Of a stretch of 64,000 nucleotides of DNA, positions 51,600 through 60,853 are shown in pieces. The notes beneath the pieces were generated by a model, which ran no database searches, was not told the DNA's origin, and worked only from the letters and a program-made list of their open reading frames with translations. The position numbers and the translations under genes were made by a program. This DNA is from Pseudaquabacterium pictum. Its GTDB lineage: Bacteria; Pseudomonadota; Gammaproteobacteria; Burkholderiales; Burkholderiaceae_C. The stretch's first letter is position 1. Every line of letters begins with the position of its first letter. Location: assembly GCF_005403045.1 (NCBI RefSeq), contig NZ_BJCL01000002.1:62001-126000 (forward strand). The letters run 5' to 3'.

Positions 51600-51677
<78 letters not shown>

Positions 51678-57589: not shown

Positions 57590-59497
57590 TCAGGCCTTGC
57601 GGGCGATGTCGTCGGTGAGCTTCGCGATGAAGTCGCCCAGCGGCATCACGCCAAGGTCGAGATTGCCCCGGGCGCGCACGGCAACCGACCCGCTTGCCTT
57701 CTCCTTGTCGCCTGCGACGAGGATGTACGGGACCTTTTGCAATGAATGCTCACGGATTTTATACGTGATTTTTTCATTGCGCAAATCGGCCTGTACTCTA
57801 ACTCCTTGTTTTTGCAGCGATTTCACCACTTCGGCCACGTAATCATGCTGCGCGTCGGTGATGGTGGCCACCACCACCTGCACCGGCGCCAGCCAGGCCG
57901 GCAGTGCGCCGGCGTGCTGCTCGATCAGGATGCCGAGGAAACGCTCCAGGCTGCCGACGATGGCGCGGTGCAGCATCAGCGGCCGGTGGCGGCTGCCGTC
58001 CTCGCCCACGAACTCGGCATCCAGCCGCTCGGGCAGGTTGGGGTCGATCTGGATCGTGCCGCACTGCCAGGGCCGGCCCAGTGCGTCCTTCAGCGTGTAC
58101 TCGATCTTGGGCCCGTAGAAGGCGCCCTCGCCCGGCAGGATCTCGAAATCGCAGCCCGAGGCGCGCAGGCCTTGCGCCAGCGCGGCTTCGGCGCGGTCCC
58201 AGCTTTCCTCGGTGCCGATGCGCTGCGCCGGCCGCGTGGACAGCTTGTAGATGATCTCGCTGAAGCCGAAGTCCTTGTAGACCTGCTGCAGCAGCGTGGT
58301 GAAGGCCTGCACCTCGGCCTGCACCTGGTCTTCGGTGCAGAAGATGTGGCCGTCGTCCTGGGTGAAGGCGCGCACCCGCATGATGCCGTGCAGGCCGCCA
58401 GTGGGCTCGTTGCGGTGGCACTGGCCGAATTCACCGTAGCGCAGCGGCAGATCGCGGTAGCTCTTGATGCCCTGCTTGAAGATCAGGATGTGGCCCGGGC
58501 AGTTCATCGGCTTGAGGGCGTAGTCGCGCTTCTCGCTCTCGGTGACGAACATGTTGTCGCGGTACTTGTCCCAGTGGCCGGTCTTCTCCCACAGGCCGCG
58601 GTCGAGGATCTGCGGGCCCTTGACCTCCTGGTAGCCGTTGTCGCGGTAGACCTGGCGCATGTACTGCTCGACCTGCTGCCACACCACCCAGCCCTTGGGA
58701 TGCCAGAACACCGTGCCGGGGCTGTGCTCGTCCATGTGGAACAGGTCGAGTTCCTTGCCGAGCTTGCGGTGGTCGCGCTTCTCGGCCTCTTCCAGCATCG
58801 TCAGGTACTTCTGCAGATCGTCCTTGCTGGCCCAGGCCGTGCCGTAGACGCGCTGCAGCTGCTCGTTCTTCTGGTCGCCGCGCCAGTAGGCGCCGGCCAC
58901 CTTCATCAGCTTGAAGTGCTTGAGCTTGCCGGTGCTGGGCACGTGCGGGCCACGGCACAGGTCTTCGAACGTGCCTTCGCGGTAGAGCGACACATCCTGG
59001 TCGGCCGGAATGCTTTCGATGATCTCGGCCTTGTACAGCTCGCCCTGGGCCTTGAAGTGGGCCACGGCCTCGTCGCGCGGCAGCACGCGGCGCACCACCG
59101 GCTCGTCCTTCTTGGCCAGCTCGCCCATGCGCTTCTCGATGGCGGCCAGGTCGTCGGGCGTGAACGGGCGCTTGTAGGCAAAGTCGTAATAGAAGCCGTG
59201 CTCGACCACCGGGCCGATCGTCACCTGCGCGTCGGGGAACAGCTGCTTGACCGCATAGGCCAGCAGGTGGGCGGTGGAGTGGCGGATCATCTCCAGGCCG
59301 TCGGCATCCTTGTCGGTGACGATGGCCAGCTGGGCGTCCTGCCCGATCAGGAAGCTGGTGTCGACCAGCTTGCCATCCACCTTGCCGCCCAGCGCGGCCT
59401 TGGCCAGGCCGGTGCCGATGGACGCGGCCACGCCCGCCACGGTAACAGGCTCGGGGAACTGGCGTTGGGAACCATCGGGCAGGGTGATCGTGATCAT
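57590..59497 (-). CDS. thrS: Threonine-tRNA ligase
   Basis: The 635-residue enzyme has an N-terminal TGS domain ([19 protein letters not shown]), an editing domain with the metal-binding [15 protein letters not shown], and a class II catalytic core ([20 protein letters not shown], then the [10 protein letters not shown] helix). The anticodon-binding C-terminus follows. Residues about 561-589 are encoded by a stretch of only about 40% GC. A GGAG ribosome binding site precedes the ATG at 59497. Upstream lies an attenuator-like leader with a Thr-rich peptide. Confidence 0.96.
57756..57784 (-). promoter_or_regulatory. Promoter-like element inside thrS, likely for infC
   Basis: On the minus strand TTGCGC (57784-57779) and TAAAAT (57761-57756) are 17 bases apart, inside the low-GC island of thrS. 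It points at infC, whose start lies about 270 bases downstream. An internal infC promoter within thrS is known from E. coli. Confidence 0.55.
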
Positions 59498-59531: not shown

Positions 59532-59555
59532 AAAAAAGCGCGGGGGACCGCGCTT
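59532..59555 (-). terminator. Intrinsic terminator in the thrS leader (attenuator)
   Basis: On the minus strand AAGCGCGG (59555-59548) pairs perfectly with CCGCGCTT (59543-59536) around a 4-base loop and runs into a six-T tract. It lies 35 bases before the thrS ATG. A second CCGCGCT copy at 59598-59592, just after the leader-peptide stop, can pair with the left arm AGCGCGG (59554-59548) and would prevent terminator formation. Confidence 0.85.
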
Positions 59556-59602
59556 GTTTGTTCGAGGGGGCAGGAAGCGAACAGGCGTGGCAGCGCGGCC
59601 GG

Positions 59603-59641
59603 TCAGGCGACGGTGGTGGCCGGGGTAGTTCGCGGTGTCAT
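59603..59641 (-). CDS. Threonine-rich leader peptide of thrS
   Basis: On the minus strand a 12-codon ORF reads M-T-P-R-T-T-P-A-T-T-V-A and stops with TGA. Five of its residues are Thr, encoded by ACA, ACT, ACC, ACC and ACC, including two adjacent pairs. An AGAAGGG ribosome-binding-like sequence lies about 10 bases before the ATG. The peptide sits between the predicted transcription start (near 59677) and the terminator, exactly where a ribosome stalled on uncharged Thr-tRNA would control thrS. Confidence 0.75.
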   Translation of the reverse strand: MTPRTTPATTVA

Positions 59642-59683
59642 AACCAGGGTGCCCTTCTCGCTCTTGTGGATCGTAAAACCACG

Positions 59684-59689
59684 ATTGTA
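59684..59689 (-). promoter_or_regulatory. Putative -10 element of the thrS promoter
   Basis: TACAAT on the minus strand lies about 7 bases before the expected transcription start of the attenuator leader. A clear -35 at the right distance is not visible; TTGCCA is 14 bases away, which is too close. The assignment rests on position. Confidence 0.5.
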
Positions 59690-59740: not shown

Positions 59741-60853
59741 CTACAGCGGCAACGCATCCTGCGTCGGCTTGGCCAGCCAGTCGGCGGCCTCGTCGGCCAG
59801 CTGCTGGGCGGCGGACACGGCCGCGCGCCAGCGGCGGATGCGCTCGGCCGGGTCATGCCAGAAGGCCTTGAAGTCGATGCGGTCGGGCAACTTGCCGCCG
59901 GGCAGCGTGGCCACCCAGTCGGGCCGGGGCGACAGCACCACCAGGTTGTCCAGCTTCGCGCTGGCCCGGTGGCGGTGCTTCAGCGGCTTGTCCAGCCAGC
60001 CCGGCACCACCCGGTGCTGGAAGTGGGGGTACAGCACCAGGCCCTCGGGCATGCCGGCGTAGTCGAGGTGCAGGTGGTAGTCGGTGATGCCGCCGTCCCA
60101 GTAGGCGCCGGGCGGCGCGCCGGGAATGTCGTGCACGGCCTGCAGCACGAAGGGGATGGAGCCGCTGGCCTGCATCGCCGGGTGGAAGTTGTCGGGCGTC
60201 AGCGTGACCTGGCGGCTGCTGAAATCGGTCAGCGGCACCGGCAGCGCCAGGCGCGCATCGGAGAACACGACCCGCTGCATCCAGCCGCCCAGCGCCCGGC
60301 GGTGCAGCAGGTTGGCCGCTGCCGCGCCGGCCAGGCCCAGCGGCGTGCGCAGCCGTCCTTCGCGCCGCAGCAGCGGGCCGCGGCCCCGGCTGGTGAAGAC
60401 ATGCAGGTGCCAGTGCGGGTGTTGCAGCAGCGCGGCCTCGCGGCCGCCGAACTGCAGCTGCAGGTTGGCGGCGAACACGCGGCTGACCTCGGCCGCGGTG
60501 GGCAGCTGGCCCGGGGCGGTGTCGAAGCGCTGGTCGATGTAGCCCTCGGCCATGCGGGTGAATTCGGCCACCGGGTCGGGCAGCAGTGCGCAAGCCATGC
60601 GCCAGGCACCGACCGAAGCGCCGAGCAAGTGCACCGGCGCAGCCCCTGCGGCCTGCGGCAGCCAGTGGCCGAACAGCCAGCGGTCCAGCGGGTTGAGCAC
60701 CAGGCCCTTGGCGCCGCCGGCGGCCGCGGGCACGGCGCGCACATCGGCCGGCTGCAGGCCGCGCTCGCGCAGCCAGGCCAGGGCGCGCGGGCCGGCATGC
60801 ACGGCCAGCGCGCGGGGGCGGGAGGGGATCACAGCCGCTGTCACAACCGCCAT
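59741..60853 (-). CDS. Patatin-like phospholipase family protein
   Basis: The 370-residue protein has the patatin layout. An oxyanion-like AAAGGAKGLVL segment is at about residues 43-53, the nucleophile elbow is GASVGAWRM (Ser80), and the catalytic Asp is in YWDGGITDYHLH near residue 250. The family hydrolyses acyl lipids, but this length and lineage are uncharacterised. The ATG at 60853 overlaps the end of the receptor gene; a GTG at 60844 (GTGA overlap with its stop) is the alternative. It is probably cotranscribed with the receptor. Confidence 0.85.
   Translation of the reverse strand: MAVVTAAVIPSRPRALAVHAGPRALAWLRERGLQPADVRAVPAAAGGAKGLVLNPLDRWLFGHWLPQAAGAAPVHLLGASVGAWRMACALLPDPVAEFTRMAEGYIDQRFDTAPGQLPTAAEVSRVFAANLQLQFGGREAALLQHPHWHLHVFTSRGRGPLLRREGRLRTPLGLAGAAAANLLHRRALGGWMQRVVFSDARLALPVPLTDFSSRQVTLTPDNFHPAMQASGSIPFVLQAVHDIPGAPPGAYWDGGITDYHLHLDYAGMPEGLVLYPHFQHRVVPGWLDKPLKHRHRASAKLDNLVVLSPRPDWVATLPGGKLPDRIDFKAFWHDPAERIRRWRAAVSAAQQLADEAADWLAKPTQDALPL

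What the first reader, a model, noticed from the sequence alone, without database searches (positions are those of the whole stretch)
59532..59689. Complete-looking ribosome-mediated attenuator upstream of thrS with a Thr-rich leader peptide
Directly seen on the minus strand: a 12-codon ORF (59641-59603) with five Thr codons, two of them in adjacent pairs; a terminator hairpin with a six-T tract (59555-59532); and a segment CCGCGCT at 59598-59592 just after the leader stop that repeats the 3' arm of the terminator and so can pair with its 5' arm. A ribosome stalled at Thr codons would leave this segment free to form an antiterminator, and a ribosome reaching the stop would cover it. This is the classical logic of amino-acid attenuators, here applied to threonyl-tRNA synthetase, which E. 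coli controls by a translational operator and Bacillus by a T-box. I do not know whether it has been described for this lineage.
Basis: partly seen in the sequence, partly recalled or inferred. Interest (0 to 1): 0.85.

Follow-up and report, generated by a model that had tools for sequence, protein, structure and literature searches.

The report
Predicted threonine attenuator upstream of thrS
In front of the gene for threonyl-tRNA synthetase lies a tiny threonine-rich reading frame and an RNA on/off switch that probably turns the gene up when threonine runs short; the same device is found in many related bacteria and nearly always puts one slow arginine codon in front of the key threonine codon.

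Summary
Of 78 thrS loci fetched by protein, 48 carry the same leader start and 5 a displaced one; leaders occur in 16 other families. In 130 leaders, Thr is 21.9% of codons 6 to stop in frame, 1.2% and 3.1% in the other frames; the segment at the stop pairs better with its own terminator arm than with permuted ones. I found no report for this lineage; a weaker thrS leader was proposed in Streptomyces. Unexpected: the Arg codon before the first control Thr is CGA in 46 of 49 leaders (3.9% of Arg codons in thrS). CGA slows ribosomes in the Salmonella his leader. Against: 25 of 78 thrS loci lack a leader, 13 of 47 representatives have only two Thr codons and the 1:2 hairpin hardly beats shuffles, and no transcript data were seen.

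The parts
59684..59689 (-). -10-like hexamer TACAAT of the presumed leader promoter (no good -35 seen)
   Evidence: Sequence. The consensus scan found no promoter. A TANNAT-like hexamer lies 22-60 nt upstream of the leader ATG in 70 of 130 leaders.
59652..59659 (-). Shine-Dalgarno-like GAGAAGGG of the leader ORF
   Evidence: Sequence. An SD-like triplet at -17 to -5 in 123 of 130 leaders.
59603..59641 (-). leader ORF, MTPRTTPATTVA + TGA; Thr codons 2, 5, 6, 9, 10
   Evidence: in-frame Thr enrichment and start/synonymous variants in relatives.
59627..59632 (-). conserved CGA-ACT (Arg4-Thr5) dicodon, proposed slow codon plus first control codon; lies in segment 1
   Evidence: CGA 46 of 49 and ACT 43 of 49 in leaders fetched by thrS protein; CGA before Thr in 17 of 18 Arg-Thr leaders without the MTPRT block (16 of 17, and L216 by eye).
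59591..59600 (-). segment 2 (GGCCGCGCTG), 5' arm of the antiterminator, 2 nt after the stop codon
   Evidence: Pairs 59599-59592 with 59554-59547 (fold, -17.6 kcal/mol for the stop-to-arm stretch); own-arm preference in relatives.
59578..59583 (-). TGTTCG, 5' arm of the inner antiterminator helix; the overlapping GTTCGC can also pair with GCGAAC of the ORF
   Evidence: Folds.
59559..59564 (-). CGAACA, 3' arm of the inner antiterminator helix
   Evidence: Fold.
59548..59555 (-). segment 3: 5' arm of the terminator, shared with the antiterminator
59532..59543 (-). segment 4: 3' arm of the terminator (59543-59536) and six-T tract (59537-59532)
   Evidence: a terminator core recognised in 130 of 134 leaders.
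57590..59497 (-). thrS, threonyl-tRNA synthetase, the presumed regulated gene; infC, rpmI, rplT, pheS and pheT follow on the same strand
   Evidence: NCBIfam equivalogs; ORFs.

Best explanation
This is a ribosome-mediated transcription attenuator of thrS that reads the supply of charged tRNA-Thr. Transcription starts a little downstream of 59684, and a ribosome starts on MTPRTTPATTVA. When Thr-tRNA is short it stops with Thr codon 5 or 6 in the A site (59629-59624). Segment 2, which begins 22-25 nt beyond those codons, stays free and pairs with the 5' arm of the terminator; the antiterminator forms and thrS is transcribed, with whatever genes read through behind it. When Thr-tRNA is plentiful the ribosome reaches the stop codon (59605-59603) and covers segment 2; the terminator 59555-59532 forms and transcription ends. 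With no ribosome on the leader, codons 4-6 may pair with segment 2 or the bases behind it and give termination by default. Shown: the parts, their conservation, the in-frame Thr codons, the own-arm preference of segment 2 and the spacing. Inferred: transcription start, translation, termination, the response to threonine, and the default state.
For: Leader start conserved in 48 of 78 thrS loci fetched by thrS protein. 197 of 250 genomes of the family hold the 18-mer at up to 2 mismatches; the reversed-pattern control hits about 30 of the 250 (my hand count of the table), so most but not all of the 197 are real. Of 99 pattern loci examined (a few places twice, the window among them), all 78 with 0-1 mismatch lie 113-280 nt before thrS; of 21 with 2 mismatches, 11 lie before thrS. 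Changes in the core are largely of coding type: GTG start in the three other genomes of the own genus, CGA to CGG (7 of 130), ACA to ACG (1); replacements are CGA to CTG (5), ACA to GCA (2), ACT to ATT (1). Thr codons, codons 6 to stop: 249 of 1136 in frame, 12 of 1006 and 31 of 1006 in the other frames; 47 representatives: 73 of 445, 8 of 398, 12 of 398. Segment 2/arm pairing beats shuffles at p<0.05 in 43 of 130 leaders (14 of 47 representatives) and at p<0.5 in 115 of 130, and beats permuted arms. Compensating examples: L013 (TGCGCGG with CCGCGCA) and L056 (ACGCGGA with TCCGCGT). Segment 2 starts at least 21 nt after codon 5 in 42 of 47 representatives (22-26 nt in 25 of them) and between -9 and +12 nt of the end of the stop codon in 35 of 47. 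Loci without the MTPRT block carry other Thr leaders at the same place, such as MFRTSTTTQS, MFKRTTTTRISR, MAVRTTTTHP, MIQAPRTTTASERQ.
Against: 25 of 78 thrS loci have no leader ORF; 17 of those 25 still have a terminator-like hairpin before thrS. In the wider sample only 17 of 80 loci outside the family show a leader. Of 47 representatives, 13 have only two Thr codons, for example MTPRTFLLKR and MTPRTCKVSEPRR. The 1:2 pairing beats shuffles at p<0.05 in only 4 of 47 representatives and 3 of 47 in a run-length test. In 12 of 47 representatives the best segment 2 starts more than 12 nt before the end of the stop codon, and in 5 of 47 less than 21 nt from codon 5. Terminator arms are alike between species, so the gain of own over permuted arms is small (0.6-0.8 kcal/mol). 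The promoter scan found none. No RNA or protein data.
Confidence: 0.86

Rival explanations
1. The leader is a stalling uORF whose signal is not Thr-tRNA: the fixed start (ATG ACA CCG CGA ACT) halts or slows the ribosome through the CGA codon or the first residues, and the hairpins respond to general translation speed.
For: Codons 1-5 are near-invariant, synonymous sites included, while the rest of the peptide varies; some families keep MTPRT with no further Thr; CGA slows ribosomes in the Salmonella his leader (PMC4046918, passages).
Against: Thr codons are strongly enriched in frame behind the core, and several families without MTPRT have Thr-rich leaders instead. The gene behind it is thrS. 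Two of the five core codons are themselves Thr.
Confidence: 0.08
2. thrS is controlled by its own enzyme or by uncharged tRNA binding the 5' RNA (E. coli operator type or T-box type), and the small ORF is incidental.
For: ThrRS represses its own mRNA in E. coli by binding 5' hairpins (PMC3858243, passages).
Against: No Rfam family matches the leader at the gathering threshold; at E up to 5 only sub-threshold sRNA and lncRNA hits appear, no T-box. Neither model explains an in-frame Thr excess or coding-type substitutions. Binding of ThrRS itself was not testable.
Confidence: 0.03
3. The hairpin is the terminator of the upstream gene and the ORF is a chance frame.
For: It lies between two genes on one strand; 17 of 25 leaderless thrS loci have a hairpin there and no ORF.
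Against: ORF and hairpin stay with thrS over many families although upstream neighbours differ (58 of 80 order-level loci have a tRNA-Val string there; the window has another ORF); in-frame Thr enrichment.
Confidence: 0.02

Closest known systems
Ribosome-mediated amino-acid attenuators of enterobacteria (trp, his, thr operons; pheST as the synthetase case)
   Same: Short leader ORF with codons of the cognate amino acid, terminator with T tract, alternative antiterminator whose 5' segment sits at the leader stop. PMC1262725 (passages) names pheST as a classical attenuator of a synthetase gene; the rest is recalled.
   Different: Other gene, other order, a near-invariant start, and a nearly fixed CGA before the first control codon; many members have few control codons.
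thrL-thrS leader of Streptomyces lividans (PMC8079986, passages)
   Same: A leader peptide with Thr codons upstream of thrS, listed as an attenuator from RNA-seq.
   Different: MKRVRPFLETTPGFVPAR, leaderless, two Thr, one hairpin and no U-rich stretch, so termination was left unclear; no likeness to MTPRT. The passages show no functional test.
E. coli thrS translational operator
   Same: Control of thrS in its 5' RNA.
   Different: Works by ThrRS binding hairpins and blocking the 30S (PMC3858243, passages); the passages describe no leader peptide and no terminator choice.
T-box leaders of thrS in Firmicutes
   Same: Terminator/antiterminator choice that reads tRNA-Thr charging (recalled; PMC2494555 seen in a search listing only).
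   Different: Uncharged tRNA binds the RNA directly (recalled); no T-box match here.

Membership tests
Ribosome-mediated amino-acid attenuator | Short translatable ORF between promoter and regulated gene, conserved as coding sequence | tested here: met
   Start codon ATG 126, GTG 3, ATA 1 of 130; CGA 118, CGG 7, CTG 5; ORF of 10-18 codons in 42 of 47 representatives. Translation itself not shown.
Ribosome-mediated amino-acid attenuator | Excess of codons for the cognate amino acid in the ORF's frame | tested here: met
   21.9% in frame against 1.2% and 3.1%; 13 of 47 representatives have only two Thr codons.
Ribosome-mediated amino-acid attenuator | Intrinsic terminator between the ORF and the gene | tested here: met
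   Window. A recognised core in 130 of 134 leaders.
Ribosome-mediated amino-acid attenuator | Mutually exclusive antiterminator with covarying partner | tested here: met
   Own arm better than permuted arms: 0 of 5000 (130 leaders), 46 of 5000 (47 representatives); the gain is small.
Ribosome-mediated amino-acid attenuator | Geometry: segment 2 free when stalled at the control codons, covered at the stop codon | tested here: met
   Codon 5 to segment 2 at least 21 nt in 42 of 47 representatives; segment 2 at the stop codon in 35 of 47. Footprint size is recalled.
Ribosome-mediated amino-acid attenuator | 1:2 protector/pause hairpin | tested here: inconclusive
   Permutation 0 of 5000, but only 4 of 47 and 3 of 47 representatives beat shuffles.
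Ribosome-mediated amino-acid attenuator | Readthrough rises on starvation for the amino acid | not testable with these tools
   Needs an experiment.
T-box | Match to the T-box covariance model | tested here: not met
   No T-box among hits at the gathering threshold or at E up to 5.
E. coli thrS translational operator | ThrRS-binding anticodon-like stem-loops at the thrS ribosome-binding site | not tested
   No model of the operator was searched.

The most novel reading that the evidence does not exclude
The conserved core is a two-part sensor. A built-in slow codon (CGA, read by an inosine anticodon: recalled) just before the first control Thr codon holds the ribosome at a fixed place while RNA polymerase makes segment 2, so that one Thr codon is enough to sense charging. 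This pacemaker would replace the polymerase pause hairpin and the long runs of control codons of enterobacterial attenuators. It would explain why CGA-Thr is kept across families when residues around it change, and why leaders with only two Thr codons persist.
Probability: 0.35. Interest if true: 0.78.

Novelty: new variant of a known kind. Interest (0 to 1): 0.62.

Why it matters
It offers an answer to how thrS, which heads a thrS-infC-rpmI-rplT-pheS-pheT gene row here, is regulated in a large order; in the window I found no T-box, and I did not look for the E. coli operator. It suggests that synthetase control by leader peptides is wider than the textbook cases. The conserved CGA-Thr dicodon offers a clean natural test of whether codon speed, not only codon identity, is a selected part of attenuators.

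Tried and rejected
Rfam ncS54 (Burkholderia sRNA) gave a full-length but sub-threshold match (15.9 bits, cut-off 43). The paper on it lists ncS54 among its candidate regulatory sRNAs, apart from its group of short 5'UTRs, and its main text does not contain thrS or threonyl (PMC5688073, passages). I take the match as chance likeness of a terminator; I did not locate ncS54 relative to thrS.

The idea that 1:2 pairing explains the invariance of CCGCGAAC was tested and not borne out: most representatives keep the segment without a partner better than chance. The idea that the core is needed only for initiation is weakened by Ralstonia, where the ATG lies further upstream (MIQAPRTTT) and CACCGCGAACTAC is kept in frame.

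Class-wide search for the 17-mer core: among 226 genomes outside the own family, one hit with 1 mismatch (G645, locus L187). The 200 nt printed show no such leader to my eye; I did not test that locus for thrS.

Literature: nine searches in a library without most subscription journals. No paper on a thrS leader peptide in Betaproteobacteria turned up among the rows listed; one search listed 15 of 1,251. A search for the letters MTPRT gave five papers, unrelated by title and abstract. The surveys of Vitreschak et al. 2004 and of Merino and Yanofsky (recalled) could not be read, so absence from print is not established. Passages were searched in PMC5688073, PMC4603805 (none of the terms found), PMC2965389, PMC7011215, PMC8079986, PMC1262725, PMC4046918, PMC11805395 and PMC3858243; none was read whole.

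Rows dropped: of 134 unique leaders, 4 (L021, L025, L053, L182) were left out of the pairing and Thr counts because the script called no known terminator core. L053 and L182 visibly have one, L021 has another hairpin, L025 a broken one. The set of 134 is partly chosen by the core pattern; the less biased subset is the 49 (48 loci and the window) fetched by thrS protein, themselves taken at up to 3 mismatches to the core. Identical leaders were collapsed. In one search the script also calls ORFs that I think doubtful and do not count (L196, L207, L237, L253, L259, L261); L237 is kept as the exception in the CGA count. In L078, L080, L190, L194, L240 and L247 the script took a start other than the one I quote; the true start is unknown. 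In the 25 leaderless loci the small frames with three or more Thr lie in the tail or overlapping frames of the upstream gene (my reading).

Full report
What is there. The minus strand between 59689 and 59497 holds a -10-like TACAAT, a Shine-Dalgarno-like GAGAAGGG, the ORF ATG-ACA-CCG-CGA-ACT-ACC-CCG-GCC-ACC-ACC-GTC-GCC-TGA (59641-59603), the segment GGCCGCGCTG (59600-59591) and the terminator AAGCGCGG-TCCC-CCGCGCTT with six T (59555-59532), then thrS from 59497. thrS and the following infC, rpmI, rplT, pheS and pheT match their NCBIfam equivalogs above cut-off. Segment 59599-59592 pairs with 59554-59547 in the fold of the stop-to-arm stretch, with an inner helix TGTTCG/CGAACA, -17.6 kcal/mol; the bare terminator stem is -12.8. 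The combination occurs once in the window and in none of 25 shuffles of it. No Rfam family reaches its threshold here.

Relatives fetched by thrS protein. A scan of genome contigs gave 80 loci (the best 80 kept of 587), 78 with upstream DNA. 48 of the 78 have GGTTATGACACCGCG-type leaders; one of these (L045) has lost its start codon. Five more (Ralstonia L042, L050, L052; Pandoraea L078; Achromobacter L080) have displaced leaders with CGA-ACT in frame: MIQAPRTTTASERQ (twice), MIRAPRTTTASERQ, MFMIARTFTVVKVRR, MFFPPARTTTRNFRPMSR. The other 25 have no leader ORF by motif, by eye or by ORF listing; 17 of these 25 still have a terminator-like hairpin before thrS.

Relatives fetched by the motif. 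197 of 250 genomes of the family hold the 18-mer with at most 2 mismatches, while the reversed pattern hits about 30 of 250 (hand count for the control); in the order 87 of 399 do, chance hits included. Of 99 loci examined (a few places twice, the window among them), all 58 exact and all 20 one-mismatch hits lie upstream of thrS, as do 11 of 21 two-mismatch hits. Changes inside the block are largely of coding type: GTG start in the three other genomes of the own genus, CGA to CGG, ACA to ACG; the replacements are CTG for CGA, GCA for ACA and one ATT for ACT.

Wider sample. In 110 genomes of the order, 107 gave thrS, 104 of them outside the own family; I took the upstream DNA of 80 of these (L231 only 299 bases). 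By reading I count 17 of 80 with a leader ORF with Thr codons before a terminator, in 11 families (f3, f4, f5, f6, f14, f23, f24, f28, f39, f49, f51); L216 of f24 has a single Thr, in CGA-ACT. With the pattern hits found upstream of thrS (own family f1, and f8, f10, f32, f35, f47) that is 17 of 51 family labels. Of the rest of the 80, 24 (hand count) show a tRNA gene and a terminator with no such ORF.

Threonine codons. Behind the fixed first five codons, Thr makes up 249 of 1136 codons in frame and 12 of 1006 and 31 of 1006 in the two other frames; for 47 cluster representatives 73 of 445, 8 of 398 and 12 of 398. That is hard to explain without selection for Thr codons. Yet 13 of the 47 have only two Thr codons in all, and families such as f35, f39 and f47 have leaders like MTPRTCFYAKSNKVASIP, MTPRTFLLKR and MTPRTCKVSEPRR. 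Thr richness beyond the core is therefore common, not universal.

Alternative pairing. The stretch from 9 nt before the end of the stop codon to the terminator pairs better with its own terminator arm than with permuted arms (0 of 5000 for 130 leaders, 46 of 5000 for 47 representatives; gain 0.8 and 0.6 kcal/mol). Against shuffles the segment 2/arm pairing reaches p<0.05 in 43 of 130 leaders (14 of 47 representatives). Compensating examples are L013 and L056. Pairing of the ORF start with segment 2 passes the permutation test (0 of 5000) but hardly beats shuffles (15 of 130, 4 of 47; run-length test 3 of 47). It looks real in single cases (CGCGAACGAC with GTTGTTCGCG in L001) and is unproven in general.

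Geometry. In the representatives the best segment 2 begins at least 21 nt after codon 5 in 42 of 47 (22-26 nt in 25), and between 9 nt before and 12 nt after the end of the stop codon in 35 of 47; in the other 12 it begins further upstream. A ribosome at Thr5 or Thr6 leaves a segment at the stop free and one at the stop codon covers it, given the usual footprint (recalled).

The CGA codon. In the 49 leaders fetched by thrS protein, codon 4 is CGA in 46 and CGG in 3, codon 5 is ACT in 43, ACG in 5 and ATT in 1. Arg codons further on in the same leaders are CGA in 2 of 36; over all 134 leaders they are CGA in 16 of 123. In thrS itself CGA is 122 of 3145 Arg codons (3.9%) and ACT 6.2% of Thr codons. 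In leaders without the MTPRT block that have an Arg-Thr pair, the Arg codon is CGA in 16 of 17 called by script (the exception L237, CGT, is a doubtful ORF), and in L216 read by eye. Lineages with MTPLTT replace Arg by Leu (CTG), and some leaders have neither (MLKTDTTTLMISG, MRPPTTSFTRLPG). In the Salmonella his leader CGA slows translation and de-attenuates (PMC4046918, passages; a CGA-CGA pair also in PMC11805395, passages). I read the conserved CGA as a likely built-in slow step before the control codon; that is inference. An RNA-level reason for CGAAC is not excluded.

Known or new. A thrS leader peptide has been proposed in Streptomyces lividans (MKRVRPFLETTPGFVPAR, two Thr, no U-rich stretch; PMC8079986, passages), and attenuators of pheST, trpS and leuS are in print (PMC1262725, passages). 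For Betaproteobacteria my nine searches found nothing among the rows listed, in a library that lacks most subscription journals. I file this as a new variant of a known kind.

Limits. Everything here is sequence comparison. Translation of the ORF, termination at the hairpin and the response to threonine are predicted, not seen.

Noticed in passing
L188-L267 (80 thrS upstream regions of other families): A tRNA-Val(GAC) anticodon-arm string (CTTGACATGG) lies within 450 nt upstream of thrS in 58 of 80 order-level regions. The thrS leader may there be part of the tRNA transcript. The window lacks this neighbour (its only Rfam tRNA is at 51603-51676).
   Followed up: partly
L002, L003, L004, L008, L010, L014, L027, L060 (last 120 nt before thrS): These thrS genes (three titled Limnohabitans, the others unclassified relatives) have no leader ORF but keep a -10-like TAAAAT and, about 30 nt on, a strong GC hairpin with a T run; several have AGCGTTT near the presumed 5' end, complementary to the hairpin's 5' arm. 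What a terminator so near the start does is unclear.
   Followed up: partly
L045 and L025, upstream of thrS: Decaying copies: L045 has ATA for the start and Ile for Thr5 with an intact terminator; L025 has the leader start but a broken terminator.
   Followed up: no
L144, L146, L160, L161, L183, L189, L200: A lineage variant reads MTPLTT/MTPLTC/MTPLTY (CTG for CGA); five of the seven have an in-frame ATG two codons upstream (ATGGTTATG), so the start is uncertain.
   Followed up: no
window 59744-60799, minus strand: The ORF upstream of the leader gave no NCBIfam match in the part tested (E up to 1e-10).
   Followed up: no
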